From Sipunculus nudus (taxonomy: Eukaryota; Annelida; Sipuncula; Golfingiida; Sipunculidae): a stretch of 64,000 nucleotides of DNA. Positions 26,119-64,000 of this stretch are shown in pieces; position 1 is the stretch's first letter; each line of letters begins with the position of its first letter. Below the pieces are notes generated by a model. That model was not told the origin of the DNA. It was given only the letters and a program-made list of their open reading frames with translations, and did no database searches. The stretch lies in NCBI GenBank assembly GCA_026874595.1, contig CM049306.1, positions 10,685,019-10,749,018 on the forward strand, written 5' to 3'. The translations under genes were made by a program, and so were the position numbers.

Positions 26119-26928
26119 AGCGAACCTGTGAGCTTATGCGATGGCGCAGCTTGGTCCGTCCATCCGTCGTCAGCTGTCAGCCATGCACTATCCGCCGTCC
26201 GCCATCCAGGGCTGGCTTTCTGCCGTCCATGGCTGTAAGTCAGAAACCGTCAGAGCTAGCAGCTCCAAATTACATGTAAGAATTAGTCACATGTGAAACC
26301 TGGTGCCCTGAAGCTTATTATTGGGTATCTGCATTAATTTAGATTTATAGAGAAAAAGCTTAAAAATCTTCTTCTCTGAAACTGTCCAGCCAAATTGTCC
26401 AATATTTCACAGAAATGATCCCTGGAACAATCTCTCTCAAGTTTGTTGGAATGGTTCCAGTTCGGAGATTTTTGGCCGAGTTACAAGGAGGTTGAACTTA
26501 GTCATCTGTCCACAAAAGCACATTAAAATTAAAATCTCAGAAACGGCTAGAGCTATAATCAACTTTTTTATACCAATGTTTGTCACATATGTCATATCGA
26601 ATTTTGAGGTATAGGTGGCGCCACCTACATTGATGTGTTTTTTAAAAGCAAAAATGTAATTTTAAACTCTTCTAGCTTATACACTGATTTATGATGAAAC
26701 TGTTAAGCTGATTGGTTTAAACATTACAAGAATTATTCTGTGGTAGGATTCTGCCAGTTTTATAAGAATAGATTGGGTAAATACAATTTTTAAAAAAGCA
26801 TTGTAGCCAATTGAAAAAGGCTTTCTGTATTTGAAAAGAGATTTGACAACACACTGAGTTTCAGCAGCCAAGTCAAGAGGTCACTCAGTACAAACAGGTT
26901 GGGTCCAGACATCACCATGGCAACTGAC

Positions 26929-26950
26929 CGGGGGGGGGGGGGGGGGGGGA
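26929..26950. repeat. 20-base G tract inside family A copy 1
   Basis: The G run at 26930-26949 replaces CTGGCTCTGGCGG at the matching position of copy 2 (about 49436-49448), so it expanded after the copies separated. Confidence 0.85.
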
Positions 26951-27239
26951 GGTGTCTAGACAATGTGTCTAGACGTCTAGACACAATGTTTAGATGCAGA
27001 ATTCCCAGATTATTGGAACTATATCTTTCAACTGTTTGAAAAAACTTGGTTTGCATTTTAAGTGAATCGGGTTTATCATCAGGTCGCATGTGAACTGCTG
27101 CGCCCTCATTTTTGGTTGACCTCTGACCTTTCCTCGCTGCCCAGCGTCCATTTGTGTGTCTGTTTCCACACATAAACCCGCATATCTCGGGAACCGTTTG
27201 ACCGATCAGGCTAAAACTTTTGCACAAATGTAGCCCTTT

Positions 27240-28015
27240 GATAGCTTTATAACATACACTAAAAATGGTGGCGCCACCTGCAACCATTTTTGCACAGCGT
27301 CCATCTGTTCATCTGCCTTGGGATAATATCACTCATATCTCAGCAGTGGTTTGACTTATCCATCTGAAATTTTGCAGATTTATACATCCTAGACAGCTTT
27401 CTAGATTTTATGACAGGTGGCGCAACCTACATTCACGTTTACTCTGCAGACATCCAAGCTCATATCTCGGGAACCGTTTGACCGATTGGGCCAAAATTTT
27501 ACATGTGTATAGATCTCGCATAGCTCTTCATCATAAGCAAAACTGGTGGGGCCACCTGCAACCACTTATGCACAGCATCCATCTGTTCATCTGCCTTGGG
27601 ATATAATCACTCATATCTCAGAAGTGGTTTGACTTATCCACCTGAAATTTTGCAGGTTTATACATCCTGGACAGCTTTCTTGATTTTTTTGACAGGTGGC
27701 GCCACCTACATTCACATTTACTCTGCAGATATCCAAGCTTATATCTCGGGAACCGTTTGACTGATTGGGCCAAAATTTTGCTTGTGTTTAGATCTCACAT
27801 AACTCTTCATCCTAAGCAAAACTGGTGGCGCCACCTGCAACCACTTATTACACCTTCCATCTGTTCATCTGCCTTGGGATAAAATCACTCATATCTCAGC
27901 AGTGGTTTGACTTATCCACCTGAAATTTTGCAGGTTTATACATCCTCGACAATTTTATCGATTTTATGACAGGTGGCACCACCTACATTCACGTTTAAGC
28001 TGCAGACAAGCATGC
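27240..28015 (+). repeat. Family A dimeric array, about 2.5 units
   Basis: Units alternate two related halves. One has CATATCTCAGCAGTGG, GACTTATCC, GAAATTTTGCAGGTTTATAC. The other has CATATCTCGGGAACCGTTTG, CAAAATTTTGC, ATAGATCTC. Each half ends in a GGTGGCGCCACC-type palindrome. The same unit occurs about 51 times at 49.8-64 kb. Confidence 0.9.
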
Positions 28016-28112
28016 TAATATGCAATACAGCTCACTCTATTCCCCTTAAATTGACACTTAATCCATGCCTCACTTCACCCGTCCCACTCTGATTTCTGCG
28101 GATACACATATA

Positions 28113-28142
28113 TAGTCGCTTGTCGACTACGCATATTCTAGT
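28113..28142 (+). other. Helitron-like 3' signature (hairpin then CTAG-T)
   Basis: TAGTCG (28113-28118) pairs with CGACTA (28124-28129) over a five-base loop. Eight bases later comes CTAG (28138-28141) followed by T. Helitron ends carry a short hairpin about 10 bases before CTRR and sit next to T. It lies 160 bp inside the apparent end of family A, so it may be an alternative terminus or that of an older nested element. Confidence 0.55.
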
Positions 28143-28303
28143 TTTAAACTGTCCTAGTCTGAATTTTGCAGGTCTGAAATGTCCATTTTGCTGAAATCAT
28201 AATGACAAAGGTAGATATGCAGGATCAATATCAAATTTTAAAAATAAACCTCCATTCATACTCCCAAACTTTGCACAGGTTTGCATTAGGCCTGTAGGCC
28301 TTG

Positions 28304-31300
28304 TTTTAATTTTTACGAATTTTTTCTCTATTTTTGATACTATCAAAGAAGCTGTCATCAGTCAACAGGGCACAAATTATAACTGCTAGACCTGGAATCT
28401 TCAAACTTGATATCCTGAGAGATCCATAAAATATCTCCTTGGAGACCTAAAATTGGGTCTCTGTTACCCATATTCTCAGAGCTATGGAGCTTGTAAGTAG
28501 CCTCCAGAATAATCAAAGATTTGATACAAAAGCTCAAGTATCTGAATAACTACTGCATTGATCACAATGATTTTTTGCATGAATATTGATTATGGAGTGT
28601 TCCATCAGTTCCTGCAAACTGGAGGCGCTAGCTGTACTTTTTCTAATTTTTACTAATTTTTTCTCTATTTTTGATACTTTCAAAGAAGCTGTCATTTGTC
28701 AACAGGGCACAAATCGTAACCACTGGATCTGGAATCTTTAAACTTGACATTCTGAGAGGTCCATGGAATATCTCTTGGAAACCTGAAATTAGGTCTCTGT
28801 TACCCATATATTCCCTGAGATATGGGTCTTGTAAGTACCCCTCAGATTAATCAAAACTTTGATACAAAAACTTCCTTTTAGGTCTATGAAATATCTCCTT
28901 GGAAACCTGAAATTAGATCTCTGTTACCAATATTCTCTGAGCTGTAGAGCTCATAGGTACCCTCCAGAATAATCAAAGATTTGATACAAAAGCTCAAGTA
29001 ACTTCATAATTACTTCCTTGATCACCATGATTCTTTGCATGAATATTGATCATGGAGTGTTCCATCAGTTCCTACAAACCTGTGGTGCCACCTATACTTT
29101 TTCTATTGATAACCATTTTATTTTTCTCTATTTTTGATACTTTCAAAGAAGCTGTCATATGTCAACAAGGCACAAATCGAAACTGCTTGACCTAAAATCT
29201 TCAAACTTGATATCCTGAGAGATCCATGAAATATCTCCTTTGAGACCTAAAATAAGGTCTCTGTTACCCATATTCTCCAAGCTATGGAGCTTGTAAGTAG
29301 CCTCCAGAATAATCAAAGATTTGATACAAAAGCTCAAGTATCTGAATAACTACTGCATTGATCACAATGATTTTTTGCATGAATATTGATTATGGAGTGT
29401 TCCATCAGTTCCTGCAAACTGGTGGTGCCACCTGTACTTTTTCTAATTTTTACAATTTTTATGCCCCCGCCACAAAGTGGCCGGGGCATATAGTTTTACC
29501 CATGTCGGTCATTCTGTCCTTCCGTCCTTCCGTCATTCCGAAATCAAACAGTTGTACGGACTTTTTTTCACAATGCCTGCAGATATTGGCCTGATTTTTG
29601 GTGTATGGGCAGATAATGACCAGTTACAGATTGAGTTCGCGTTTTGTCCCAGTTGACCTACTTTTGACTGTTTTACGGCTCCTAAACTTAGAAAATTTCA
29701 TGAAAAATAGAAATTTTCATGACAAATGTACACATGTACGGACTTTTTTTCGCAATGCCTGCAGATATTGGCCTGATTTTTTGTGTGTGGGCAGATAATG
29801 ACCAGATACAGATCGAGTTCGAGTTTCGTCCCGGTTGACCTACTTTTGAACGTTTTACGCCTCCTTAACTTAGAAAATTTCATGAAAAATAAAAATATTC
29901 ATGACAGATACACATGTACGGACTTTTTTAGCAATGCCTGCAGATATTGGCCTGATTTTTGGTGTGTGGGCAGATATAGACCAGTTACAGATCGAGTTCG
30001 CGTTTCATCCAGGTTGACCTACTTTTGACTGTTTTACGGCTCCTGAACATAGAAAATTTCATAAAAAATATGAAATTTCATGACAAATACACATGTACAG
30101 ACTTTTTTTCGCAATGCTTGAGATATTGGCCTGATTTTTGGTAGTGGGCAGATATTGACCAGTTACAGATCAAGTTCGCGTTTCGTCCCAGTTGACCTAC
30201 TTTTGATTGTTTTACGGCTCCTGAACACAGAAAATTTCATGTTAAATATAAATTTTCATGACAAATACACTTGTACAGACTTTTCTTCGCAATACCTGCA
30301 GATATTGGCCTGATTTTTGATGTGTGGGCAAATAATGACCAGTTACAGATCGAGTTCACGTTTTGTCCCAGTTGACCTACTTTTGACCATTTGACGGTGC
30401 TCTAACATAGAAAATTTCATAAAAAAGTGCACATGTATGGACTTTTTTTCGCAGTGCCTGCAGATACGGGCCTGATTTTTGGTGTGTAGGCAGATAATGA
30501 CCAGTTACAGATCGAGTTCTTGTTTTGTCCCAGTTGACCTACTTTTGACCATTTGACTGCTCCTGAACATAGAAAGTTTCATGAAAAATAGAAATTTTCA
30601 TAACAAATGCATATGTACTGACTTTTGATTGTTTTCAGCTCCTAAACATAAAAAATTTCATGAAAGACAGAAATTTTAATGGAAAATGCACATGTATGGA
30701 CTTTTTTTCACAATGCCTGCATATACTGGCATGATTTTTGGTGTGTTGCTTGATAATGACCCGTTACAGATCGAGTTTGCATTTTGCCCTTGTTGACCTA
30801 CTTTTGACCATACGACACCTCCCGAACTTAAAAAATTTTTCAAAATTTTACAAATGTTTCTAATTTGCCCCAGGCGGGGGCATTCATGTCGTTCCGACAC
30901 ATCTAGTTTTTCTCTATTTTTGATACTTTCAAGGAATCTGTCATCTGTCAACAGGGCACAAATTGTAACTGCTGGAACTATTAATCCCTGAGATATGGGT
31001 CTCGTAAGTACCCTCCAGAATAATCAAAGATTTGATACAAAAGCTCAAGTATCTTCATAATTACTTCCTTGATCACCATGATTCTTTGCATGAATATTGA
31101 TCATGGAGTGTTCCATCAGTTCCTACAAACCTGTGGTGCCACCTGTACTTTTTCTAATTTTTACCATTTTATTTTTCTCTATTTTTGATACTTTCAAAGA
31201 AGCTGTCATCTGTCTACAGGGCACAAATCTTAACCGCTGGACCTGAAATCTTCTAACTTTACATCCAGGGAGGTCCATGAAAAATCTCTGTGGAAACATG

Positions 31301-32375
31301 AAATTAGGTCTCTGTTACCCATATCCTTCAAACTATGGTGCTCGTAAATTCCCGTCAGAATAATTAATAATTTGATAGAAAAGCTGCACTATCTGGACAA
31401 CTGATGTATTGATCACCACGATTTTTTGCATGGGAATTCATCATGGAGTGTTTCATTCATTCCTGCAAACTGGTGGTGCCACATGGATTTTGTTGAATTT
31501 TTACGCTTTTTTGGCTCTATTTTTGAGACCTTCAGAGAAGTGCTCTTCTATTAACAAGGCACAAATTGTAACTATTCCACCTTGAATCTACTAACTTGAC
31601 ATGTAGAGAGATCACTGAAAAATCTCTTTGGAAACCTGAAATTAAGTCTTGGTTACTCTTATCCTCTGAGCTATAGGGATCAGAAGTACCCCCAAAAATA
31701 ATTAAAAATTTGATACAAATTAAGCTGCACTATCTTGACAACTAATGCATTGATCACCATGATTCTTTGCATGAATATTGATCATGGAGTGTTCCATCAG
31801 TTGCTGCTAACTGGTGGTGCCACATGTATTTTTACAAATTTTTCAAAGAAGCTGTCATCTGTTAAGAGAGCATAAATCATAACTGCTAGACTTGGAATCT
31901 TCATACTTGATATCAAGGGAGGTCCATGAAATATCTCCTTGGAAACCTGAAATTAGGTGTCTGTTACCCATATCCTCTGAGCTATGGGTCTTGAAAGTAT
32001 CCCCCAGAATAATAAAAAATTTGATACAAATTAAAGCTTCAGTATCTTAAAAATTACTTCCTTGATCACCATGATTCTTTGCATGAATATTGATCATGGA
32101 TTGTTCCATTAGTTCTTGAAAACTGGTGGTTCCATGTGTATTTTTCTTATTTTTACGAATTTTTTTCTCTATTTTTGATACTTTCAAAGAAGCTGTCATC
32201 TCTTAACAGGGCCTAAGTCATAACCACTGGACCTTGAATCTTCTAACTTGACATCAAAGGAGGTCCATGAAAAGTCTCTATGGAAATCTGAAATACGGTC
32301 TCTGTTACCCATATCCTCCAAACTATGGCGCTCGTAAATACCCCTCCAGAATAATTAAAAATGTGATACAAAAAC
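28304..32375 (+). repeat. Family B array, about 340-bp units
   Basis: The landmark GCATGAATATTGATCATGGA or a close variant lies near 28576, 29037, 29378, 31088, 31427, 31768 and 32083, giving spacings near 340 bp where undisturbed. Units contain CTCTATTTTTGATACTTTCA, CAACAGGGCACAAATC, GTCTCTGTTACCCATAT, AATCAAAGATTTGATAC and CTGGTGGTGCCACCTGTAC. One unit (about 28690-28990) has an internal partial duplication. The array is interrupted by the insertion 29461-30906. Confidence 0.88.
29461..30906 (+). mobile_element. GCCCCC-hairpin Helentron/HINE-like element
   Basis: The 5' end is an imperfect hairpin (29461-29473 with 29477-29489, one mismatch). A GTCC/TTCC core follows at about 29512-29538. 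Seven or eight units of about 180 bp come next (GTACGGACTTTTTTTCGCAA, GATATTGGCCTGATTTTTGG, GTTGACCTACTTTTGA), some shortened. The 3' end is GGCGGGGGCATTC, a hairpin TGTCG-TTC-CGACA (30887-30899) and CTAG (30903-30906) followed by T. It splits one family B unit cleanly between T runs, with no obvious target duplication. No protein is encoded. Confidence 0.82.
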
Positions 32376-33165
32376 TCTGCATTAGTTTCCAGAGAATTCC
32401 TCTAAGACCCTTGGACCAATCTTTCCGAAACCCAGCATAGTTGTTCCTTCACCTATGTTGTTGGTCCTAACAAAGACAGGTGGCCCCACCAGCAGCCCTT
32501 TCTGTGCAGTACGAATCTTGGTGTCTTTTAGATAACAGGCCATATCTCAGGAGTGGCCCAATGTATTGTGCTGAAAGTTTGCATGTCCATAGATCTTGGA
32601 TCTCTCTATCTGATAATTGCGATTGGTGGTGCCACCTACAATACTTTTTGCAAAGTGTCCATCTGTGCATTTGCCATCTGTTCTTCAATGTATTGGGTTA
32701 AAATTGTGCATGTTCATAGATCTTCAACTCCTACATCTTGTAAACAAGATGGGTGGCACCAACTGCAGTCGTTTTCACGTGGTGTCCATCGGTATATTTG
32801 CTTTTGGTTAAAATTGCTCATATCTCAGGAATGGTTCAAGATATTGGTCTGAAATTTGGCATGTCCATCCATCTTGGAAAGTTTTCTCGTAAACCAGACA
32901 GGTGGCGCCACATACTTTCCCGGTTTTGTAGAATAAATAAATGCCCTTTTCTCAGGAGTGATTTGCTGTATTGGCCTGAATTGGTGCATACCCATAGATC
33001 TTAGACTATTCCATCTTGTACTCAAGACTGGTGGTGCCATCTGCATGCCTACATGTGCTTTGGGTGAAAATTGCTCATATCTTAGGAGTGGTTTAAGATA
33101 TTGGTCTAAAATTTGGCATGTCAATCCTTCGTTGAGAGTTTTCTTATAAACCAGACATTTCTAAG
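32376..33165 (+). repeat. Family C array, forward orientation
   Basis: Units read CATATCTCAGGAGTGG or CATATCTCAGGAATGG, a TATTGGTCTGAAATTTGGCA block, TGTCCAT with ATCTTGG, and GGTGGCGCCACATACTTTCC or GGTGGTGCCACCTACA. They match the reversed array at 20.9-22.9 kb and, more distantly, the halves of family A. Confidence 0.85.
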
Positions 33166-33479
33166 GACTCTTCACAAAATTAATAATTTTTTAGCACTCT
33201 GGCAGTCAATTTGCTCATTGTTTAACATTCCTTGAATTCAGCTGAGTGTCATGGCCCATGGGTCACCAGTTCTTATTGGTTCTGGCATTTGACACTGAAG
33301 GAGTTTGACAGGACTTGCACCTGACAGCTAGCCTTTCTGCCTGTTACTGGTGCTTTTTGTTATTCATCACGCAGCATTCGCCCACCACTGATAATCTGCC
33401 AGTCTTATCATGCATTATCATCCTTGTAGAATGCCTCTGGCTTCACCTTTTTGAGGTAACCCCTGCTAAACTTGAGCAT
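33166..33479. other. Unique DNA and possible SINE tail
   Basis: No gene is supported. TCAGCTGAGTGTCATGGCCC (from 33239) recalls CAGCTGAGCACAGTGACCC near 10637, so a short dispersed repeat may be present at both places. Confidence 0.4.
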
Positions 33480-33650
33480 GTGGCTTCTCACAGACTCTGT
33501 GATTGGGCACGACCCTCCCAATAAGCCTGCAGAGCACTTGCCCTCAGTAGAGGCCGACTGTGAAAAATCTCAAGGCCTTTGCTGAGATTTGAACTCATGA
33601 TCTACCGGTGTTGAGTCCTGTGCTCTAACCCTGAGCCACAGAAGCAGGTT
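33480..33650 (-). mobile_element. tRNA-derived SINE, minus strand
   Basis: The plus strand GCTCTAACCCTGAGCCA (33622-33638) is an inverted A box. GAGATTTGAAC (33584-33594) is an inverted B box (GTTCAAATCTC). The spacing is tRNA-like. The body after the head (TTTTTCACAGTCGGCC, then TGCTCTGCAGGC when inverted) matches the SINE at 16361-16500, so the two belong to one family with different heads or decay. The 5' and 3' limits are approximate. Confidence 0.75.
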
Positions 33651-34858: not shown

Positions 34859-34860
34859 TA

Positions 34861-35013: not shown

Positions 35014-35015
35014 TA

Positions 35016-38730: not shown

Positions 38731-40088
<1,358 letters not shown>

Positions 40089-43058: not shown

Positions 43059-43068
43059 GAGTCTGGCT

Positions 43069-48540: not shown

Positions 48541-49448
48541 ACAAGGCCAGCATGAAGATCACAGGAAGCTAAAATATCAAGAGGTGGAAGCAGGTTACAT
48601 AAATTCCACGAATTTGCTGGTTTGAGCAAATTTTATTTTTACTTTTACACAAATCCCATATGTGACAAACTTTTTAAGCAAACCTGTGAGCTTATGCGAT
48701 GGTGCAGCATCGTTCGGTGTGCATGGTGTGTCATGCGTCGTCTGTGGTACATTAACCATAGCTATCTCATAACCGGCAGGAGCTAGCTAGCATCACCAAA
48801 TTTTTTGCAAATAAATTTTTTTTTTTTTCTAACTGCATTTTCTGAGATTTTATAGGGAAAAAGCTAAAAAAGCTTTAAAAATCTTCTTCTCCGAAACTGT
48901 CCAGCCAAATTGTCCAATATTTCACATAAATGATCCCTGGAACAATCTCTCTCAAGTTTGTTCGAATGGTTCCAGTTTGGAGATTTTTGGTCGAGTTACA
49001 GGAGGTTGAACTTTGTCATCTGTCCAAATGAGCACACTAAAATTAAAATCTCAGAAACGGCTAGAGCAATAATCACCAATTTTTACACCAATGTTTGTCA
49101 CATATGTCATATCTGAAATTGAGGTATTGGTGGCGCCACCTACATTGATGTGTTTTTTACAGGCGAAAATGTAATTTTAAACTCTTCTAGCTTATACACT
49201 GATTAATGATGAAACTGTTAAGCTGATTGGTTTAAAATTTACAAGAATTATTCTATGGCAGGATTCTGCTAGTTTTAGATTGGGTAAATACAGCTTTAAA
49301 AAAGCATTGTAGCCAATTGAAAAAGGCTTTCTGTGTTTGAAAACAGATTTGACAACATGCTGAGTTTCAGCAGCCAAGTCAAGAGGTCACTAAATACAAA
49401 CAGGTGGGGTCCAGATATCACCATGGCAACTGACCTGGCTCTGGCGGG

Positions 49449-49500
49449 TGTCTAGACAATGTGTCTAGATGTCTAGACACAGCGTCTAGACGTCTAGACA
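49449..49500. repeat. Cluster of GTCTAGAC palindromes
   Basis: TGTCTAGACA-type palindromes occur four times in 52 bp, alternating with AATGT and AGC spacers. Copy 1 has a shorter version at 26954-26985. Confidence 0.85.
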
Positions 49501-49895
49501 CAATGTTTAGATGCAGAATTCCCAGATTATTGGAACTATATCTTTCAACTGTTTGAAAAAACTTGGTTTGCATTTTAAGTGAATCGGGTTTATCATCAGG
49601 TTACATGTGAACTGCTGCGCCTTCATTTTTGGTTGACCTCTGACCTTTCCTGGCTGCCCAGTGTCTATTGTGCGTCTGTTTCCAGACATAAACCCACATA
49701 TCTCGGGAACCGTTTGACCAATCAGGCTAAAAATTTTGCAAAAATGTAACCCTTTGATAGCTTTATAACATACACTAAAAATGGTGACACCACCTGCAAC
49801 CATTTATGCACAGTGTCCATCTGTTCATCTGCCTGGGGATAAAATCACTCATATCTCAGCAGTGGTTTGACTTATCCACCTGAAATTTTCCAGGT

Positions 49896-51551
49896 TTATA
49901 CATTCTGGACAGCTTTCTCAATTTTATGACAGGTGGCACGACCTACATTCACGTTTACTCTGCAGACATCCAAACTCATATCTCGGGAACTGTTTGACCG
50001 ATTTGGCCAAAATTTTGCATGTGTATAGATCTCACATAGCTCTTCATCATAAACAAAAGTGGTGGCACCACCTGCAACCATTTTCCACAGCGTCCATCTG
50101 TTCATCTGCCTTGGGATAAAATCACTCATATCTCAGCAGTGGTCTGACTTTTCCACCTGAAATTTTGCAGGTTTATACATCCTGGACAGCTCTCTTGATT
50201 TTATGACAGGTGGCACGACCAACATTCACGTTTACTCTGCAGACATCCAAGCTTAAATCTCGGGAACCGTATGACCGTTTCAGCCAAAATTTTGCATGTG
50301 TATAGATCTCACATAGCTCTTCATCATAGGCAAAACTGGTGCCACCTGCAACCATTTATGCACAGCGTCCATCTGTTCATCTGCCTTTGGATAAAATCAC
50401 TCATATATCAGCAGTGGTTTGACTTTTCCACCTGAAATTTTGCAGGTTTATACATTCTGGACAGCTTTCTCAATTTTATGACAGGTGGCACGACCTACAT
50501 TCACGTTTACTCTGCAGACATCCAAACTCATATCTCGGGAACTGTTTGACCGATTTGGCCAAAATTTTGCATGTGTATAGATCTCACATAGCTCTTCATC
50601 ATAAACAAAAGTGGTGGCACCACCTGCAACCATTTTCCACAGCGTCCATCTGTTCATCTGCCTTGGGATAAAATCACTCATATCTCAGCAGTGGTCTGAC
50701 TTTTCCACCTGAAATTTTGCAGGTTTATACATCCTGGACAGCTCTCTTGATTTTATGACAGGTGGCACGACCAACATTCATGTTTACTCTGCAGACATCC
50801 AAGCTTAAATCTCGGGAACCGTATGACCGTTTCAGCCAAAATTTTGCATGTGTATAGATCTCACATAGCTCTTCATCATAGGCAAAACTGGTGCCACCTG
50901 CAACCATTTATGCACAGCGTCCATCTGTTCATCTGCCTTTGGATAAAATCACTCATATATCAGCAGTGGTTTGACTTTTCCACCTGAAATTTTGCAGGTT
51001 TATACATTCTGGACAGCTTTCTCAATTTTATGACAGGTGGCACGACCTACATTCACGTTTACTCTGCAGACATCCAAACTCATATCTCGGGAACTGTTTG
51101 ACCGATTTGGCCAAAATTTTGCATGTGTATAGATCTCACATAGCTCTTCATCATAAACAAAAGTGGTGGCACCACCTGCAACCATTTTCCACAGCGTCCA
51201 TCTGTTCATCTGCCTTGGGATAAAATCACTCATATCTCAGCAGTGGTCTGACTTTTCCACCTGAAATTTTGCAGGTTTATACATCCTGGACAGCTCTCTT
51301 GATTTTATGACAGGTGGCACGACCAACATTCACGTTTACTCTGCAGACATCCAAGCTTAAATCTCGGGAACCGTATGACCGTTTCAGCCAAAATTTTGCT
51401 TGTGTATAGATCTCACATAGCTCTTCATCATAGGCAAAACTGGTGCCACCTGCAACCATTTATGCACAGCGTCCATCTGTTCATCTGCCTTTGGATAAAA
51501 TCACTCATATATCAGCAGTGGTTTGACTTTTCCACCTGAAATTTTGCAGGT
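49896..51551 (+). repeat. 552-bp higher-order repeat, three copies
   Basis: Two adjacent monomers (277 + 275 bp) repeat as a block beginning at 49896, 50448 and 51000, almost without differences. The exceptions are single bases (for example ACATTCACG against ACATTCATG at about 50777). Confidence 0.9.
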
Positions 51552-51829
51552 TTATACATCCTGGACAGCTCTCTTGATTTTATGACAGATGGCGCCACCT
51601 ATATTCACATTTAGTCTGCAGACATCCAAGCTCATATCTCGGTGACTGTTTGACTGATTGAGCCAAAATTTTGCATGTGTATAGATCTCACGTAGCTCGT
51701 CATCATAGGCAAAACTGGTGGCGCCACCTGCAACCATTTTTGCACAGGGTCCATCTGTTCATCTGCCTTGGGATAAAATCACTCATATCTCAGCAGTGGT
51801 TTGACTTATCAACTTGAAATTTTGCAGGT

Positions 51830-54800
51830 TTATAAATCCTGGATAGCTTTTTCGATTTTATGACAGGTGGCACGACCTACATTCACGTTTACTCTGCAGA
51901 CATCCAAGCTCATATCTCGGGAACCTTTTGACCGATTTGGCCAAAATTTTGCATGTGTATAGATCTCACATAGCTCGTCATCATAGGCAATACTGGTGGC
52001 GCCACCTGCAACCATTTTCGCACAGCATCCATCTGTTCATCTGCCTTGGGATAAAATCACTCATATCTCAACAGTGGTTTGACTTATCAACCTGAAATTT
52101 TGCAGGTTTATAAATCCTGGATAGCTTTTTCGATTTTATGACAGGTGGCACAACCTACATTCACATTTACTCTGCAGACATCCAAGCTCATATCTTGGGA
52201 ACCATTTGACCAATTTGGCAAAACTTTTGCATGTGTATAGATCTCACATAGCAATTCATCATAGGCAAAACTGGTGCCACCTGCAACCATTTATGCACAG
52301 CGTCCATCTGTTCATCTGCCTTTGGATAAAATCACTCATATATCAGCAGTGGTTTGACTTTTCCACCTGAAATTTGCAGGTTTATAAATCCTGGACAGGT
52401 TTCTCGATTTTATGACAGGTGGCACGACCTACATTCACATTTACTCTGCAGACATCCAAGCTCATATCTCGAGAACTGTTTAACCAATTTCGCAAAAATT
52501 TTGCATGTGTATAGATCTCACATAGCTCGTCATCATAGGCAATACTGGTGGCGCCACCTGCAACCATTTTTGCACAGGGTCCATCTGTTCATCTGCCTTG
52601 GAATAAAATCACTCATTTCTCAGCAGTGGTCTGACTTATCAACTTGAAATTTTGCAGGTTTATAAATCCTGGACAGCTTTCTCAATTTTATGACAGGCGG
52701 CATGACCTACATTCACGTTTACTCTGCAGACATCCAAGCTCATATCTCGGGAACCTTTTGACTGATTTGGCCAAAATTTTGCATGTCTATAGATCTCACA
52801 TAGCTCGTCATCTTAGGCATACCTGGATACCTGGTGGAGCCACCTGCAACCACTTATGCACAGCGTCCATCTGTTCATCTGCCATAGGTAAAATCACTCA
52901 TATCTCAGCAGTGGTCTGACTTATCAACCTGAAATTTTGCAGGTTGATACATCCTAGACAGCTTTCTTGATTTTATGACAGGTGGCACGACCTACATTCA
53001 CATTTACTCTGCAGACATCCAAGCTCATATCTTGGGAACCATTTGACCGATTTGGTAAAAATTTTGCATGTGTATAGATCTCACATAGCTCGTCATCATA
53101 GGCAAAACTGGTGGCGCCACCTGCAACCATTTTTGCACAGGGTCCATCTGTTCATCTGCCTTGGGATAAAATCACTCATATCTCAGAAGTGGTTTGACTT
53201 TTCCACCTGAAATTTTGCAGATTTGTACATCCTGGACAGCTCTCTTGATTTTATGACAGGTGGCACGACCTACATTCACGTTTACTTTGCAGATATCCAA
53301 ACTCATATCTCGGGAACCATTTGACCAATTTGGCCAAAATTTAGCATGTGTATAGATCTCACATAGTTCTTCATCATAGGCAAAACTGGTGGCGCCACCT
53401 GCAACCACTTATGCACAGCGTCCATCTATTCATCTGCCTTGGGATAAAATCACTCATATCTCAGAAGTGGTTTGACTTATCCACCTGAAATTTTTCAGGC
53501 TTATACATCCTGGACAGCTTTCTCGATTTTATGACAGGTGGCACGACCTACATTCATGTTTACTCTGCAGACATCCAAGCTCATATCTCGGGAACCGTAT
53601 GACCGATTTGGCCAAAATTTTGCATATGTATAGATCTCACATAGCTCTTCATCATAGGCAAAACTGGTGGCACCACCTGCAACCATTTTCGCACAGCATC
53701 CATCTGTTCATCTGCCTTTGGATAAAATCACTCATATATCAGCAGTGGTTTGACTTATCAACCTGAAATTTTGCAGGTTTATAAATCCTGGATAGCTTTT
53801 TCGATTTTATGACAGGTTGCACAACCTGCATTCACATTTACTCTGCAGACATCCAAGCTCATATCTTGGGAACCATTTGACCAATTTGGCAAAACTTTTG
53901 CATGTGTATAGATCTCACATAGCAATTCATCATAGGCAAAACTGGTGCCACCTGCAACCATTTATGCACAGCGTCCATCTGTTCATCTGCCTTTGGATAA
54001 AATCACTCATATATCAGCAGTGGTTTGACTTTTCCACCTGAAATTTGCAGGTTTATAAATCCTGGACAGGTTTCTCGATTTTATGACAGGTGGCACGACC
54101 TACATTCACATTTACTCTGCAGACATCCAAGCTCATATCTCGAGAACTGTTTAACCAATTTCGCAAAAATTTTGCATGTGTATAGATCTCACATAGCTCG
54201 TCATCATAGGCAATACTGGTGGCGCCACCTGCAACCATTTTTGCACAGGGTCCATCTGTTCATCTGCCTTGGAATAAAATCACTCATTTCTCAGCAGTGG
54301 TCTGACTTATCAACTTGAAATTTTGCAGGTTTATAAATCCTGGACAGCTTTCTCAATTTTATGACAGGCGGCATGACCTACATTCACGTTTACTCTGCAG
54401 ACATCCAAGCTCATATCTCGGGAACCTTTTGACTGATTTGGCCAAAATTTTGCATGTCTATAGATCTCACATAGCTCGTCATCTTAGGCATACCTGGATA
54501 CCTGGTGGAGCCACCTGCAACCACTTATGCACAGCGTCCATCTGTTCATCTGCCATAGGTAAAATCACTCATATCTCAGCAGTGGTCTGACTTATCAACC
54601 TGAAATTTTGCAGGTTGATACATCCTAGACAGCTTTCTTGATTTTATGACAGGTGGCACGACCTACATTCACATTTACTCTGCAGACATCCAAGCTCATA
54701 TCTTGGGAACCATTTGACCGATTTGGTAAAAATTTTGCATGTGTATAGATCTCACATAGCTCGTCATCATAGGCAAAACTGGTGGCGCCACCTGCAACCA

Positions 54801-57800
54801 TTTTTGCACAGGGTCCATCTGTTCATCTGCCTTGGGATAAAATCACTCATATCTCAGAAGTGGTTTGACTTTTCCACCTGAAATTTTGCAGATTTGTACA
54901 TCCTGGACAGCTCTCTTGATTTTATGACAGGTGGCACGACCTACATTCACGTTTACTTTGCAGATATCCAAACTCATATCTCGGGAACCATTTGACCAAT
55001 TTGGCCAAAATTTAGCATGTGTATAGATCTCACATAGTTCTTCATCATAGGCAAAACTGGTGGCGCCACCTGCAACCACTTATGCACAGCGTCCATCTAT
55101 TCATCTGCCTTGGGATAAAATCACTCATATCTCAGAAGTGGTTTGACTTATCCACCTGAAATTTTTCAGGCTTATACATCCTGGACAGCTTTCTCGATTT
55201 TATGACAGGTGGCACGACCTACATTCATGTTTACTCTGCAGACATCCAAGCTCATATCTCGGGAACCGTATGACCGATTTGGCCAAAATTTTGCATATGT
55301 ATAGATCTCACATAGCTCTTCATCATAGGCAAAACTGGTGGCACCACCTGCAACAATTTTCGCACAGCATCCATCTGTTCATCTGCCTTTGGATAAAATC
55401 ACTCATATATCAGCAGTGGTTTGACTTTTCCACCTAAAATTTTGCAGGTTTATAAATCCTGGACAGCTCTCTTGATTTTATGACAGGTTGCACCACCTAC
55501 ATTCAGGTTTACTTTGCAGATATCAAAACTCATATCTCGGGAACCGTTTGACTGATTAGGCTTAAATTTTTTATGTGTATAGATATCACGTAGCTCTTCA
55601 TCATAGGCAAAACTGGTGGCGCCACCTGCAACCACTTATGCACAGCGTCCATCTGTTCATCTGCCTTGGGATAAAATCACTCATATCTCAGAAGTGGTTT
55701 GACTTATCCACCTGAAATTTTTCAGGTTTATACATCCTGGACAGCTTTCTCGATTTCATGAATGATGGCGCCACCTATATTCACATTTAGTCTGCAGACA
55801 TCCAAGCTCGTATCTCGGTGATTGTTTGACCGATTGAGCCAAAATTTTGCTTGTGTATTGATCTCACGTAGCTCGTCATCATAGGCAAAACTGGTGGCGC
55901 CACCTGCAACCATTTTTGCACAGGGTCCATCTGTTCATCTGCCTTGGGATAAAATCACTCATATCTCAGAAGTGGTTTGACTTATCCACCTGAAATTTTT
56001 CAGGTTTATACATCCTGGACAGCTTTCTCGATTTTATGACAGATGGTGCCACCTATATTCACATTTAGTCTGCAGACATCCAAGCTCGTATCTCGGTGAC
56101 TGTTTGACCGATTGAGCCAAAATTTTGCTTGTGTATAGATCTCACGTAGCTCTTCATCATAAACAAAAGTGGTGGCACCACCTGCAACCATTTTCCACAG
56201 CGTCCATCTGTTCATCTGCCTTGGGATAAAATCACTCATATCTCAGCAGTGGTCTGACTTTTCCACCTGAAATTTTGCAGGTTTATACATCCTGGACAGC
56301 TCTCTTGATTTTATGACAGGTTGCACCACCTACATTCAGGTTTACTTTGCAGATATCCAAACTCATATCTCGGGAATTGTTTGACTGATTTGGCCAAAAT
56401 TTTGCATATGTATAGATCTCACATAGCTCTTCATCATAGCCAAAACTGGTGGCGCCATCTGCAACCACTTATGCACAGTGTCCATCTGTTCATCTGCCTT
56501 GGGATAAAATCACTCATGTCTCAAAAGTGGTTTGACTTATCCACCTGAAATTTTTCAGGTTTATACATCCTGGACAGCTTTCTCGATTTTATGACAGATG
56601 GCGCCACCTATATTCACATTTAGTCTGCAGACATCCAAGCTCATATCTCGGTGACTGTTTGACTGATTGAGCCAAAATTTTGCATGTGTATAGATCTCAC
56701 GTAGCTCGTCATCATAGGCAAAACTGGTGGCGCCACCTGCAACCATTTTTGCACAGGGTCCATCTGTTCATCTGCCTTGGGATAAAATCACTCATATCTC
56801 AGCAGTGGTTTGACTTATCAACTTGAAATTTTGCAGGTTTATAAATCCTGGATAGCTTTTTCGATTTTATGACAGGTGGCACGACCTACATTCACGTTTA
56901 CTCTGCAGACATCCAAGCTCATATCTCGGGAACCTTTTGACCGATTTGGCCAAAATTTTGCATGTGTATAGATCTCACATAGCTCGTCATCATAGGCAAT
57001 ACTGGTGGCGCCACCTGCAACCATTTTTGCACAGGGTCCATCTGTTCATCTGCCTTGGGATAAAATCACTCATATCTCAGCAGTGGTTTGACTTATCAAC
57101 TTGAAATTTTGCAGGTTTATAAATCCTGGATAGCTTTTTCGATTTTATGACAGGTGGCACGACCTACATTCACGTTTACTCTGCAGACATCCAAGCTCAT
57201 ATCTCGGGAACCTTTTGACCGATTTGGCCAAAATTTTGCATGTGTATAGATCTCACATAGCTCGTCATCATAGGCAATACTGGTGGCGCCACCTGCAACC
57301 ATTTTCGCACAGCATCCATTTGTTCATCTGCCTTGGGATAAAATCACTCATATCTCAACAGTGGTTTGACTTATCAACCTGAAATTTTGCAGGTTTATAA
57401 ATCCTGGATAGCTTTTTCGATTTTATGACAGGTGGCACAACCTACATTCACATTTACTCTGCAGACATCCAAGCTCATATCTCGGGAACCATTTGACCAA
57501 TTTGGCAAAACTTTTGCATGTGTATAGATCTCACATAGCAATTCATCATAGGCAAAACTGGTGCCACCTGCAACCATTTATGCACAGCGTCCATCTGTTC
57601 ATCTGCCTTTGGATAAAATCACTCATATATCAGCAGTGGTTTGACTTTTCCACCTGAAATTTGCAGGTTTATAAATCCTGGACAGGTTTCTCGATTTTAT
57701 GACAGGTGGCACGACCTACATTCACATTTACTCTGCAGACATCCAAGCTCATATCTCGAGAACTGTTTAACCAATTTCGCAAAAATTTTGCATGTGTATA

Positions 57801-60800
57801 GATCTCACATAGCTCGTCATCATAGGCAATACTGGTGGCGCCACCTGCAACCATTTTTGCACAGGGTCCATCTGTTCATCTGCCTTGGAATAAAATCACT
57901 CATTTCTCAGCAGTGGTCTGACTTATCAACTTGAAATTTTGCAGGTTTATAAATCCTGGACAGCTTTCTCAATTTTATGACAGGCGGCATGACCTACATT
58001 CACGTTTACTCTGCAGACATCCAAGCTCATATCTCGGGAACCTTTTGACTGATTTGGCCAAAATTTTGCATGTCTATAGATCTCACATAGCTCGTCATCT
58101 TAGGCATACCTGGATACCTGGTGGAGCCACCTGCAACCACTTATGCACAGCGTCCATCTGTTCATCTGCCATAGGTAAAATCACTCATATCTCAGCAGTG
58201 GTCTGACTTATCAACCTGAAATTTTGCAGGTTGATACATCCTAGACAGCTTTCTTGATTTTATGACAGGTGGCACGACCTACATTCACATTTACTCTGCA
58301 GACATCCAAGCTCATATCTTGGGAACCATTTGACCGATTTGGTAAAAATTTTGCATGTGTATAGATCTCACATAGCTCGTCATCATAGGCAAAACTGGTG
58401 GCGCCACCTGCAACCATTTTTGCACAGGGTCCATCTGTTCATCTGCCTTGGGATAAAATCACTCATATCTCAGAAGTGGTTTGACTTTTCCACCTGAAAT
58501 TTTGCAGATTTGTACATCCTGGACAGCTCTCTTGATTTTATGACAGGTGGCACGACCTACATTCACGTTTACTTTGCAGATATCCAAACTCATATCTCGG
58601 GAACCATTTGACCAATTTGGCCAAAATTTAGCATGTGTATAGATCTCACATAGTTCTTCATCATAGGCAAAACTGGTGGCGCCACCTGCAACCACTTATG
58701 CACAGCGTCCATCTATTCATCTGCCTTGGGATAAAATCACTCATATCTCAGAAGTGGTTTGACTTATCCACCTGAAATTTTTCAGGCTTATACATCCTGG
58801 ACAGCTTTCTCGATTTTATGACAGGTGGCACGACCTACATTCATGTTTACTCTGCAGACATCCAAGCTCATATCTCGGGAACCGTATGACCGATTTGGCC
58901 AAAATTTTGCATATGTATAGATCTCACATAGCTCTTCATCATAGGCAAAACTGGTGGCACCACCTGCAACCATTTTCGCACAGCATCCATCTGTTCATCT
59001 GCCTTTGGATAAAATCACTCATATATCAGCAGTGGTTTGACTTATCAACCTGAAATTTTGCAGGTTTATAAATCCTGGATAGCTTTTTCGATTTTATGAC
59101 AGGTTGCACAACCTACATTCACATTTACTCTGCAGACATCCAAGCTCATATCTTGGGAACCATTTGACCAATTTGGCAAAACTTTTGCATGTGTATAGAT
59201 CTCACATAGCAATTCATCATAGGCAAAACTGGTGCCACCTGCAACCATTTATGCACAGCGTCCATCTGTTCATCTGCCTTTGGATAAAATCACTCATATA
59301 TCAGCAGTGGTTTGACTTTTCCACCTGAAATTTGCAGGTTTATAAATCCTGGACAGGTTTCTCGATTTTATGACAGGTGGCACGACCTACATTCACATTT
59401 ACTCTGCAGACATCCAAGCTCATATCTCGAGAACTGTTTAACCAATTTCGCAAAAATTTTGCATGTGTATAGATCTCACATAGCTCGTCATCATAGGCAA
59501 TACTGGTGGCGCCACCTGCAACCATTTTTGCACAGGGTCCATCTGTTCATCTGCCTTGGAATAAAATCACTCATTTCTCAGCAGTGGTCTGACTTATCAA
59601 CTTGAAATTTTGCAGGTTTATAAATCCTGGACAGCTTTCTCAATTTTATGACAGGCGGCATGACCTACATTCACGTTTACTCTGCAGACATCCAAGCTCA
59701 TATCTCGGGAACCTTTTGACTGATTTGGCCAAAATTTTGCATGTCTATAGATCTCACATAGCTCGTCATCTTAGGCATACCTGGATACCTGGTGGAGCCA
59801 CCTGCAACCACTTATGCACAGCGTCCATCTGTTCATCTGCCATAGGTAAAATCACTCATATCTCAGCAGTGGTCTGACTTATCAACCTGAAATTTTGCAG
59901 GTTGATACATCCTAGACAGCTTTCTTGATTTTATGACAGGTGGCACGACCTACATTCACATTTACTCTGCAGACATCCAAGCTCATATCTTGGGAACCAT
60001 TTGACCGATTTGGTAAAAATTTTGCATGTGTATAGATCTCACATAGCTCGTCATCATAGGCAAAACTGGTGGCGCCACCTGCAACCATTTTTGCACAGGG
60101 TCCATCTGTTCATCTGCCTTGGGATAAAATCACTCATATCTCAGAAGTGGTTTGACTTTTCCACCTGAAATTTTGCAGATTTGTACATCCTGGACAGCTC
60201 TCTTGATTTTATGACAGGTGGCACGACCTACATTCACGTTTACTTTGCAGATATCCAAACTCATATCTCGGGAACCATTTGACCAATTTGGCCAAAATTT
60301 AGCATGTGTATAGATCTCACATAGTTCTTCATCATAGGCAAAACTGGTGGCGCCACCTGCAACCACTTATGCACAGCGTCCATCTATTCATCTGCCTTGG
60401 GATAAAATCACTCATATCTCAGAAGTGGTTTGACTTATCCACCTGAAATTTTTCAGGCTTATACATCCTGGACAGCTTTCTCGATTTTATGACAGGTGGC
60501 ACGACCTACATTCATGTTTACTCTGCAGACATCCAAGCTCATATCTCGGGAACCGTATGACCGATTTGGCCAAAATTTTGCATATGTATAGATCTCACAT
60601 AGCTCTTCATCATAGGCAAAACTGGTGGCACCACCTGCAACAATTTTCGCACAGCATCCATCTGTTCATCTGCCTTTGGATAAAATCACTCATATATCAG
60701 CAGTGGTTTGACTTTTCCACCTAAAATTTTGCAGGTTTATAAATCCTGGACAGCTCTCTTGATTTTATGACAGGTTGCACCACCTACATTCAGGTTTACT

Positions 60801-63800
60801 TTGCAGATATCAAAACTCATATCTCGGGAACCGTTTGACTGATTAGGCTTAAATTTTTTATGTGTATAGATATCACGTAGCTCTTCATCATAGGCAAAAC
60901 TGGTGGCGCCACCTGCAACCACTTATGCACAGCGTCCATCTGTTCATCTGCCTTGGGATAAAATCACTCATATCTCAGAAGTGGTTTGACTTATCCACCT
61001 GAAATTTTTCAGGTTTATACATCCTGGACAGCTTTCTCGATTTCATGAATGATGGCGCCACCTATATTCACATTTAGTCTGCAGACATCCAAGCTCGTAT
61101 CTCGGTGATTGTTTGACCGATTGAGCCAAAATTTTGCTTGTGTATTGATCTCACGTAGCTCGTCATCATAGGCAAAACTGGTGGCGCCACCTGCAACCAT
61201 TTTTGCACAGGGTCCATCTGTTCATCTGCCTTGGGATAAAATCACTCATATCTCAGAAGTGGTTTGACTTATCCACCTGAAATTTTTCAGGTTTATACAT
61301 CCTGGACAGCTTTCTCGATTTTATGACAGATGGTGCCACCTATATTCACATTTAGTCTGCAGACATCCAAGCTCGTATCTCGGTGACTGTTTGACCGATT
61401 GAGCCAAAATTTTGCTTGTGTATAGATCTCACGTAGCTCTTCATCATAAACAAAAGTGGTGGCACCACCTGCAACCATTTTCCACAGCGTCCATCTGTTC
61501 ATCTGCCTTGGGATAAAATCACTCATATCTCAGCAGTGGTCTGACTTTTCCACCTGAAATTTTGCAGGTTTATACATCCTGGACAGCTCTCTTGATTTTA
61601 TGACAGGTTGCACCACCTACATTCAGGTTTACTTTGCAGATATCCAAACTCATATCTCGGGAATTGTTTGACTGATTTGGCCAAAATTTTGCATATGTAT
61701 AGATCTCACATAGCTCTTCATCATAGCCAAAACTGGTGGCGCCATCTGCAACCACTTATGCACAGTGTCCATCTGTTCATCTGCCTTGGGATAAAATCAC
61801 TCATGTCTCAAAAGTGGTTTGACTTATCCACCTGAAATTTTTCAGGTTTATACATCCTGGACAGCTTTCTCGATTTTATGACAGATGGCGCCACCTATAT
61901 TCACATTTAGTCTGCAGACATCCAAGCTCATATCTCGGTGACTGTTTGACTGATTGAGCCAAAATTTTGCATGTGTATAGATCTCACGTAGCTCGTCATC
62001 ATAGGCAAAACTGGTGGCGCCACCTGCAACCATTTTTGCACAGGGTCCATCTGTTCATCTGCCTTGGGATAAAATCACTCATATCTCAGCAGTGGTTTGA
62101 CTTATCAACTTGAAATTTTGCAGGTTTATAAATCCTGGATAGCTTTTTCGATTTTATGACAGGTGGCACGACCTACATTCACGTTTACTCTGCAGACATC
62201 CAAGCTCATATCTCGGGAACCTTTTGACCGATTTGGCCAAAATTTTGCATGTGTATAGATCTCACATAGCTCGTCATCATAGGCAATACTGGTGGCGCCA
62301 CCTGCAACCATTTTTGCACAGGGTCCATCTGTTCATCTGCCTTGGGATAAAATCACTCATATCTCAGCAGTGGTTTGACTTATCAACTTGAAATTTTGCA
62401 GGTTTATAAATCCTGGATAGCTTTTTCGATTTTATGACAGGTGGCACGACCTACATTCACGTTTACTCTGCAGACATCCAAGCTCATATCTCGGGAACCT
62501 TTTGACCGATTTGGCCAAAATTTTGCATGTGTATAGATCTCACATAGCTCGTCATCATAGGCAATACTGGTGGCGCCACCTGCAACCATTTTCGCACAGC
62601 ATCCATTTGTTCATCTGCCTTGGGATAAAATCACTCATATCTCAACAGTGGTTTGACTTATCAACCTGAAATTTTGCAGGTTTATAAATCCTGGATAGCT
62701 TTTTCGATTTTATGACAGGTGGCACAACCTACATTCACATTTACTCTGCAGACATCCAAGCTCATATCTCGGGAACCATTTGACCAATTTGGCAAAACTT
62801 TTGCATGTGTATAGATCTCACATAGCAATTCATCATAGGCAAAACTGGTGCCACCTGCAACCATTTATGCACAGCGTCCATCTGTTCATCTGCCTTTGGA
62901 TAAAATCACTCATATATCAGCAGTGGTTTGACTTTTCCACCTGAAATTTGCAGGTTTATAAATCCTGGACAGGTTTCTCGATTTTATGACAGGTGGCACG
63001 ACCTACATTCACATTTACTCTGCAGACATCCAAGCTCATATCTCGTGAACTGTTTAACCAATTTCGCAAAAATTTTGCATGTGTATAGATCTCACATAGC
63101 TCGTCATCATAGGCAATACTGGTGGCGCCACCTGCAACCATTTTTGCACAGGGTCCATCTAGTCATCTGCCTTGGAATAAAATCACTCATATCTCAGCAG
63201 TGGTCTGACTTATCAACTTGAAATTTTGCAGGTTTATAAATCCTGGACAGCTTTCTCAATTTTATGACAGGCGGCATGACCTACATTCACGTTTACTCTG
63301 CAGACATCCAAGCTCATATCTCGGGAACCTTTTGACTGATTTGGCCAAAATTTTGCATGTCTATAGATCTCACATAGCTGGTCATCTTAGGCATACCTGG
63401 ATACCTGGTGGAGCCACCTGCAACCACTTATGCACAGCGTCCATCTGTTCATCTGCCATAGGTAAAATCACTCATATCTCAGCAGTGGTCTGACTTATCA
63501 ACCTGAAATTTTGCAGGTTGATACATCCTAGACAGCTTTCTTGATTTTATGACAGGTGGCATGACCTACATTCACATTTACACTGCAGACATCCAAGCTC
63601 ATATCTTGGGAACCATTTGACCGATTTGGTAAAAATTTTGCATGTGTATAGATCTCACATAGCTCGTCATCATAGGCAAAACTGGTGGCGCCACCTGCAA
63701 CCATTTTTGCACAGGGTCCATCTGTTCATCTGCCTTGGGATAAAATCACTCATATCTCAGAAGTGGTTTGACTTTTCCACCTGAAATTTTGCAGATTTGT

Positions 63801-64000
63801 ACATCCTGGACAGCTCTCTTGATTTTATGACAGGTGGCACGACCTACATTCACGTTTACTTTGCAGATATCCAAACTCATATCTCGGGAACCATTTGACC
63901 AATTTGGCCAAAATTTTGCATGTGTATAGATCTCTCATAGTTCTTCATCATAGGCAAAACTGGTGGCGCCACCTGCAACCACTTATGCACAGCGTCCATC
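51830..64000 (+). repeat. 5,287-bp higher-order repeat, 2.3 copies
   Basis: The block 51830-57116 repeats at 57117-62403 and begins again at 62404. Many landmarks are exactly 5,287 bp apart (52354/57641/62928, 53172/58459, 55450/60737, 56561/61848). 5,287 bp equals 19 monomers. Differences between copies are rare single bases, for example in the third copy near 63047 and 63160. Confidence 0.93.
52108..55449 (+). repeat. 1,671-bp higher-order repeat, two copies
   Basis: Six monomers at 52108-53778 repeat at 53779-55449. Markers such as the GATACCTGGTGGAGCCACC insertion near 52826 and 54497 are 1,671 bp apart. A C-to-A change near 55353 removes one ATG in the second copy. Confidence 0.9.

What the first reader, a model, noticed from the sequence alone, without database searches (positions are those of the whole stretch)
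26119..64000. A satellite apparently born from a dispersed element: short-array and giant-array copies of family A
Copies at 26119-28303 and 48676 onward share the same start, body and pre-array segment. One carries about 2.5 dimeric units, the other at least 51. A third fragment (4470-4620) has the pre-array segment but no array. The window thus shows stages of a transposon-to-satellite transition.
Basis: partly seen in the sequence, partly recalled or inferred. Interest (0 to 1): 0.8.

Follow-up and report, generated by a model that had tools for sequence, protein, structure and literature searches.

The report
Transposon swollen by giant repeat array
A common non-coding jumping element that normally carries a few short tandem repeats has, at one place in this genome, grown its repeat array to about 88 thousand bases while keeping both of its ends, which shows how satellite DNA can start inside a mobile element.

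Summary
Family A looks like a non-autonomous Helentron (HINE): matching subterminal inverted repeats, 3' palindrome, insertion into a T run without target duplication, internal 278-bp dimers. Sequence fetched past the window shows the giant copy is one element of about 93.7 kb with both ends: 316 dimers (87.9 kb), broken only by a 4.4-kb transposon. Of 20 copies examined (the 18 best of 40 listed matches plus two neighbours), 19 have body, dimers and 3' tail in order; 18 short arrays could be measured and hold 0.7-6.7 dimers (median 2.7). Array length does not track body divergence. The giant array is hierarchical: a 19-dimer, 5,287-bp block whose first two copies differ by 3 bases, with exact repetition falling from 5' to 3'. 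A variant occurring 130 times in the 1.43-Gb genome lies 123 times here, so the array grew in place. "Born from a dispersed element" is supported; "stages of a transition" only partly: the 4480 fragment is a lone diverged monomer, and no free-standing satellite was shown (the search for other giant arrays did not complete). The process is known from oysters, Drosophila and Lathyrus; this two-ended giant is a new variant.

The parts
26119..28303 (+). Family A copy 1, complete element: 5' subTIR, body, pre-array monomer, 2.7 dimers, tail, 3' subTIR, palindrome
   Evidence: Both ends and empty sites in the host array; array 27261-28008
26120..26130 (+). 5' subterminal inverted repeat of copy 1 (GCGAACCTGTG)
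   Evidence: 1 mismatch to its own 3' repeat at 28274-28284; copy 2's 5' repeat 48678-48688 matches that 3' repeat exactly
26353..27088 (+). Body of copy 1
   Evidence: 90% to copy 2 over 26353-27260; 4568 first-look candidates genome-wide for a 601-bp query from copy 2's start and body, 40 scored
27089..27262 (+). Pre-array segment = diverged monomer of the array
   Evidence: 67% over 127 columns to half-dimer B, z 10.8
27261..28008 (+). Short array, 2.7 dimers of 278 bp
   Evidence: TRF
28009..28303 (+). 3' tail with subTIR 28274-28284 and palindrome AGGCCTGTAGGCCT 28288-28301
   Evidence: the same tail closes the giant copy at extended 142088-142401
48677..64000 (+). Family A copy 2 (giant), part inside the window; the element continues to extended coordinate 142401 (C1:10827419)
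48867..49601 (+). Body of copy 2
   Evidence: 89.9% to copy 1 body
49606..49778 (+). Pre-array monomer of copy 2
   Evidence: 93.1% to copy 1
49777..64000 (+). Giant array, first 51 of about 316 dimers
   Evidence: TRF; extension
49782..51437 (+). Two-dimer (552-bp) block repeated three times
   Evidence: 97.7% and 99.6% between successive blocks
51994..57280 (+). First 19-dimer higher-order repeat (5,287 bp = 1671 + 1671 + 1945)
   Evidence: 3 differences in 5,287 to the next copy; the first 50 dimers average 89.9% to each other
57281..62567 (+). Second 19-dimer higher-order repeat
62568..64000 (+). Start of a third block of the same order
   Evidence: 99.2-99.4% over 1,115 bp to the first two
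4480..4611 (+). Lone monomer of the pre-array type; no A start, body, array or tail found beside it
   Evidence: 81% to copy 1, 77% to copy 2 pre-array segment
25757..33270 (+). Host element C (HINE-like, 338-bp units) into whose array copy 1 and element B are inserted
   Evidence: 5' repeat plus inverted repeat 25758-25788, 9-bp 3' match 33238-33246 and palindrome 33252-33265; units. The 3' limit is approximate
29460..30906 (+). Element B (HINE-like, 179-bp array) nested in C
   Evidence: Exact 11-bp 5'/3' repeats 29461-29471 / 30873-30883, 14-bp 5' inverted repeat with 1 mismatch, 3' palindrome; empty sites

Best explanation
Family A is a non-autonomous Helentron-like element (HINE) that spreads with a few 278-bp dimers between its 5' body and 3' tail. 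At C1:10.73-10.83 Mb one copy's internal array grew in place, in dimer steps and between unchanged ends, from a few dimers to about 316. Growth was stepwise: dimers multiplied and diverged, then multi-dimer blocks (2, 6, 19 dimers) were duplicated as higher-order repeats, most recently in the 5' part. Shown: both ends present, dimers in the same phase in most copies, near-private variants, nested blocks, a 5'-to-3' decline of exact repetition. Inferred: that the duplications came from unequal exchange or break-repair between misaligned array copies rather than from a rolling-circle step, and that the decline reflects recency.
For: Both ends of the giant copy: body, 87.9 kb of dimers, then the same tail and palindrome as copy 1. 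Mobility and boundaries: copy 1 splits a C-array unit at a T run, without target duplication, seen against 5 uninterrupted junctions. Co-occurrence in 19 of 20 copies. Same phase: 13 of the 18 measured short arrays hold n + 0.7 dimers within 0.05 (0.7, 1.7 x3, 2.7 x3, 3.7 x4, 4.7, 6.65; the other five are 2.0, 2.45, 2.5, 4.9, 5.6; spans, divided here by 278). In-place growth: 64 giant-array unit types need 2 label changes on a quick tree against 21.2 in shuffles, and holding them as one clade gives a better likelihood than the free search (p-AU 0.727); a 30-mer present 123 times in the array occurs 130 times in the whole genome. Stepwise duplication: adjacent 6-dimer blocks differ by 6 in 1671, 19-dimer blocks by 3 in 5287; exact repeats of 500 bp or more cover 0.90, 1.00, 0.97, 0.98, 0.80, 0.75, 0.71, 0.72, 0.53, 0.45, 0.35 of successive 8-kb pieces, 5' to 3'.
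Against: Units diverge more (6.8% from their consensus for the 64 types) than copy 2's body end does from the family (3.0% over 469 columns), so some unit diversity may have been inherited, or the array mutates faster. With 16 unit types and only copy 1's 2 dimers, the free tree did not group copy 1's dimers apart, and neither arrangement was rejected (p-AU 0.398). The tree lacks bootstrap, uses dimers from 12 copies only, and had copy 3's 4 dimers left out. The 5'-to-3' gradient is not a prediction of plain unequal exchange. The 5' inverted repeat typical of oyster HINEs was not found in A, and the 3' hairpin is not unusually stable (28 of 200 shuffles as good). Assembly errors in near-identical 5-kb blocks cannot be excluded without reads.
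Confidence: 0.75

Rival explanations
1. The element's own rolling-circle transposition made the array: aberrant rounds of replication, or extrachromosomal circles of array DNA that were replicated and re-inserted, added blocks of many dimers at once.
For: Helitrons/Helentrons are held to move by rolling-circle replication, and truncated rolling-circle products are proposed to make tandem arrays (PMC12628747, passages). Exact repetition is highest near the 5' end. Multi-dimer blocks were added nearly unchanged.
Against: The body is not repeated inside the array; matches there are 40-62-bp stretches of the related pre-array monomer and about 20 bp around the palindromic box. The 18 other measured copies are all short. 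Circles made of array alone would leave no distinguishing mark here.
Confidence: 0.2
2. An independent satellite was captured by, or fused to, an A copy.
For: Distantly related arrays (62-73%) occur without the A body.
Against: The dimers sit in the same place in short copies and the giant copy, mostly in the same phase; the 3' tail closes both; the array variant is nearly confined to this locus.
Confidence: 0.05
3. The array is real but its length and the 19-dimer repeat are inflated by assembly.
For: Perfect repeats up to 3,930 bp are where assemblers can fail; no reads were available.
Against: 64 unit types in changing order, small differences between blocks, a single 4.4-kb insertion and more one-off units near the 3' end argue for resolved sequence.
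Confidence: 0.1

Closest known systems
Cg_HINE elements and Cg170/HindIII (CgiSat01) of oysters (PMC7492417, PMC8268682, PMC11136912)
   Same: Non-autonomous Helentron-like ends around arrays of satellite-like units, predominantly 140-180 bp; arrays mostly short; element-bound, one-sided and standalone forms coexist
   Different: Here one element with both ends holds about 316 dimers; the longest element-associated CgiSat01 array in the passages read is 89 monomers (its longest standalone array 232). The term 'higher-order' has 0 occurrences in the two papers searched for it
Ogre retrotransposon-derived satellites of Lathyrus sativus (PMC7004042)
   Same: Short arrays inside a dispersed element, a few of them hugely expanded (up to 174 kb for one family); elements inserted into expanded arrays
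   Different: LTR retrotransposon, not Helentron; expansion mainly in primary constrictions; in the passages read the nine element-derived repeats showed the monomer as their longest period, i.e. no higher-order repeat
Tetris / TIR-220 of Drosophila virilis (PMC4079207)
   Same: Internal repeats of a transposon amplified into satellite-like arrays (up to 66 copies), long arrays more homogeneous
   Different: Foldback element; its authors suggest that amplification may have disrupted the element (passages)
HINE / DINE-1 (PMC4067079)
   Same: Subterminal inverted repeats, 3' palindrome, T-rich target, internal repeats in some copies
   Different: No giant array in the passages read

Membership tests
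HINE (non-autonomous Helentron) | Subterminal inverted repeats of about 11-15 bp near both ends | tested here: met
   GCAAACCTGTG (copy 2, 5') matches CACAGGTTTGC (copy 1, 3') exactly; 1 mismatch within copy 1. Copy 2's own pair has 2 mismatches, and copy 1's 5' repeat equals the complement of copy 3's 3' repeat (read by eye). Random segment pairs reach an exact 11-bp inverted match in 14 of 4000
HINE (non-autonomous Helentron) | Palindrome / stem-loop close to the 3' end, after the 3' repeat | tested here: met
   AGGCCTGTAGGCCT 28288-28301 and the same letters in copies 2 and 3; predicted hairpin, but not more stable than shuffles (28 of 200 as good)
HINE (non-autonomous Helentron) | Inverted partner of the 5' repeat a few bases inside (oyster and Drosophila forms) | tested here: not met
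   No convincing partner in A (best matches 6-10 bp with a mismatch, none pairing the 5' repeat over more than 7 bp); present in elements B and C. Mite HINEs also lack it (PMC4067079, passages), so it does not define the whole group
HINE (non-autonomous Helentron) | Insertion into a T-rich site without target duplication | tested here: met
   Copy 1 and element B against 5 uninterrupted C-array junctions; the split falls in T runs, with T-number differences and, for copy 1, one C-to-T difference. Sites of the other copies were not examined
HINE (non-autonomous Helentron) | GTCC-like microsatellite near the 5' end | tested here: inconclusive
   Degenerate GTCC words at about 26153-26210 in copy 1, poorly kept in copy 2 (read by eye)
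HINE (non-autonomous Helentron) | Mobilised by an autonomous Helentron (Rep/helicase/endonuclease) with the same ends | not tested
   No autonomous partner was searched for; one ORF inside copy 1 has no Pfam match
Classical satellite DNA | Long tandem arrays with homogenised units | tested here: met
   87.9 kb, about 316 dimers, higher-order repeats, at one locus
Classical satellite DNA | Arrays free of element ends, at several loci or in heterochromatin | tested here: not met
   This array is enclosed by both element ends; 123 of 130 copies of its marker lie here. Chromatin was not testable, and other giant arrays with different variants could not be searched for (tool busy)

The most novel reading that the evidence does not exclude
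A satellite caught at birth with a growing end: the array lengthens from its 5' side, next to the element's rolling-circle start, so the transposon's own replication origin or nick site drives local, polarised amplification at a fixed locus without transposition. The 5'-to-3' decline of exact repetition over 88 kb would be its trace.
Probability: 0.12. Interest if true: 0.75.

Novelty: new variant of a known kind. Interest (0 to 1): 0.5.

Why it matters
How transposon-borne minisatellites turn into satellites is usually argued from mixed populations of short, one-sided and standalone arrays. Here a single element keeps both ends and a comparable body while its array shows several levels of amplification (half-dimer, dimer, 2-, 6- and 19-dimer blocks). 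Order and relative age of the steps can be read at one locus, and array length in other individuals would test unequal exchange against rolling-circle growth directly.

Tried and rejected
Array and body as independent repeats: rejected, see co-occurrence. Array length as a clock of element age: no correlation. The 4480 fragment as an array-less A copy: no start, body, array or tail found beside it. Whole-element rolling-circle concatemer: no repeated body in the array. Protein coding in A: the one ORF tested has no Pfam match (8 of the 59 ORFs were scanned, one of the others gave a reverse transcriptase). Viral and prokaryote collections for relatives: 0 exact matches with one short word each, one word shortened for a second viral scan. 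The shared palindromic box as proof of common ancestry of all arrays: with the box masked, A against the 338-bp C unit gives 2 of 200 shuffles as good, so inconclusive. Host identification through an egg-lysin family that I recall as abalone-specific: the tool did not complete. Genome-wide hunt for other giant arrays with a 4-kb array query: not completed; the 2.2-kb whole-element query likewise (and its repeats).

Paper access: PMC7492417 parts 1-2 of 7 read; PMC12628747, PMC8268682, PMC11136912, PMC4079207, PMC4067079, PMC7004042 passages only; all other papers search listings only. That I met no report of a higher-order repeat inside a two-ended Helentron rests on the listings and on those passages, not on full reading; several listed papers that hold 'higher-order repeat' and 'Helitron' were not opened.
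Full report
What was checked. TRF finds a 278-bp period with 2.7 copies at 27261-28008 and 51.2 copies at 49777-64000. Copy 1 and copy 2 share about 48 bp of start (87.5%), then 150-194 bp that do not align, then 90.3% identity over 921 columns to the array start. The fragment is 4480-4611, 81% identical to the pre-array segment.

What family A is. Copy 1 interrupts a unit of another tandem array (338-bp units of element C). Against five uninterrupted junctions the insertion falls in a T run with no target duplication, allowing for changes in the number of Ts and one C-to-T difference. Its ends carry an 11-bp subterminal inverted repeat (1 mismatch within copy 1; exact between copy 2's 5' end and copy 1's 3' end) followed at the 3' side by the palindrome AGGCCTGTAGGCCT. 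Random pairs of window segments reach such an exact 11-bp match in 14 of 4000, so the repeat alone is modest evidence; with the palindrome, the T-rich target and the internal array it fits HINEs as described in PMC4067079 (passages) and PMC7492417 (parts 1-2). One oyster-type feature, the inverted partner of the 5' repeat, was not found in A, though elements B and C have it, and the 3' hairpin is no more stable than shuffles (28 of 200 as good).

The window cuts the giant copy. The window is C1:10685019-10749018 of a 1.43-Gb, 153-contig genome. 200 kb beyond it were fetched. The array runs to extended coordinate 142093, broken only at 99667-104073, and is followed by the same 3' tail as copy 1 (tail matches at 142088-142212 and 142369-142401), subterminal repeat and palindrome. 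The element therefore spans 48677-142401, about 93.7 kb, with 87.9 kb of dimers, about 316 units. The break is a 4.4-kb insert with 11-bp inverted ends (GGGCAATTCCA) and a TTCA duplication; BLAST finds it once at full length in the window plus the 200 kb, so no block duplication still visible carried it along.

Other copies. A 601-bp query from copy 2's start and body has 4568 first-look candidates, of which 40 were scored and listed. I obtained sequence for the 18 best-scoring of these 40 (one being copy 2), plus copy 1 and a third copy at about 152.75-155.70 kb of the extended coordinates: 20 copies. In 19 of 20 the body is followed by dimers and the 3' tail (one of these interrupted by about 1.9 kb, one without the pre-array monomer, one with only the last part of the tail recognised); in 1 of 20 (C1:3.47 Mb) only about 58 bp of dimer, 2.8 kb beyond the body, precede the tail. 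The 18 measurable short arrays hold 0.7-6.65 dimers, median 2.7. Thirteen of these 18 equal a whole number plus 0.7 within 0.05, i.e. they begin and end in the same phase. Body divergence and array length are unrelated: rho 0.03 for n=18, -0.05 with copy 2 (n=19); copy 2's body end is 3.0% from the consensus, within the range of the 20, 1.6-6.2%. These copies are the best matches to copy 2, not a random sample; 22 of the 40 listed places were not fetched.

Anatomy of the giant array. In the window the first 50 dimers average 89.9% identity. A two-dimer block is repeated three times; then, after two more dimers, comes a 19-dimer, 5,287-bp block built of two 6-dimer blocks (6 differences in 1671) and a 7-dimer block. 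The second 19-dimer block differs from the first by 3 bases; a third begins at 62568 and is 99.2-99.4% alike over the 1,115 bp compared. Over the whole array 315 complete dimers fall into 64 types at up to 6 edits, 35 clusters at 5%. Exact repeats of at least 500 bp cover 74% of the array, falling from 90-100% in the first 32 kb to 35% in the last 8 kb. The half-dimers are 60% alike over 140 columns, and the pre-array segment is a third, diverged monomer. So the amplification is nested: monomer, dimer, 2, 6 and 19 dimers.

Where the units came from. On a quick tree of 64 giant-array types and 24 dimers of 12 other copies the giant units need 2 changes (shuffled mean 21.2), and holding them as one clade gives a likelihood 22.5 units higher than the free search found (p-AU 0.727). 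Left out beforehand: 4 diverged dimers of copy 3, and copies whose dimers the splitting script did not yield or that were not given to it. With only copy 1's two dimers and 16 types the question stayed open (p-AU 0.398). A 30-mer seen 123 times in the array was absent from the other sampled copies and occurs 130 times in the whole genome; the 123 lie between 49922 and 141484. A 49-mer of the general family occurs 1381 times genome-wide and never in the giant array; the places listed, the first ones only, lie along 64 Mb of C1 in clusters of at most 5. This points to local growth. It does not exclude other giant arrays with their own variants: the query meant to find those did not complete.

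Mechanism. Shown: a two-ended element, dimers mostly in one phase, nested near-identical duplications, near-private variants, a 5'-to-3' gradient. Inferred: unequal exchange or break-repair between misaligned repeats as the engine. Rolling-circle growth stays open because the gradient is polar and the element class is held to replicate that way; against it, the body is not repeated in the array. One tension remains: giant-array types are 6.8% from their own consensus, other copies' dimers 5.2% from theirs, while copy 2's body end is 3.0% from the family. Some unit diversity was therefore inherited or arose faster than in the body.

Relation to known work. Helentron-borne arrays with element-bound, one-sided and standalone forms are well described in oysters; expansion of element-internal arrays into satellites is described for Lathyrus Ogre elements (to 174 kb) and Drosophila Tetris. 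What I did not meet in the passages read is a Helentron-like element that keeps both ends around several hundred units with a higher-order repeat.

Limits. No reads were available to validate the array. Elements B and C and the distant arrays at 21016-22312 and 32541-32925 show that related monomers and similar architectures occur in several elements, so family A is one branch of a wider system.

Noticed in passing
window 21029-33030 and all A arrays: A 12-bp palindrome GGTGGCGCCACC recurs in several otherwise different tandem families (A halves, A body, C units, the 21-kb and 32-kb arrays, a 320-bp family near 22722): 144 near-matches of an 11-bp core, both strands counted, against 0.23 expected; 24 sites outside the A arrays at up to 2 mismatches. 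With the box masked, some families still look weakly related, so shared descent is not excluded.
   Followed up: partly
window 25757-33270: Nested stack: HINE-like element C (338-bp units, then a second array related to A's dimers at 32541-32925) holds A copy 1 and element B (179-bp array) inside its array; tandem arrays act as landing sites.
   Followed up: partly
window 21016-22312 (- strand) and 32541-32925 (+): Arrays 73% alike to each other over 299 columns and 62-73% to A half-dimers, without the A body.
   Followed up: partly
extended coordinates 99667-104073 (C1:10784685-10789091): 4.4-kb transposon with 11-bp inverted ends and TTCA target duplication inside the giant array; itself contains reversed pieces 67-82% like the C units.
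   Followed up: partly
window 40713-42877: LINE-like remnant: reverse transcriptase (RVT_1, E 2e-25) at 40713-41258 with downstream ORFs.
   Followed up: no
window 18604-20411: 1.8-kb CAT/CCA-rich degenerate repeat; the same motif recurs at 22874-22968 and 24097-24193.
   Followed up: no
window 33574-33645 (-): Weak tRNA match (30.2 bits, cut-off 29, E 0.028), not called by ARAGORN; perhaps a tRNA-derived SINE.
   Followed up: no
C6:44.64-44.65 Mb (merged L003/L030): Several partial A body pieces (71-84% alike) and a second start follow a complete short copy in the same orientation, as repeated insertion or truncated rolling-circle products might leave.
   Followed up: no
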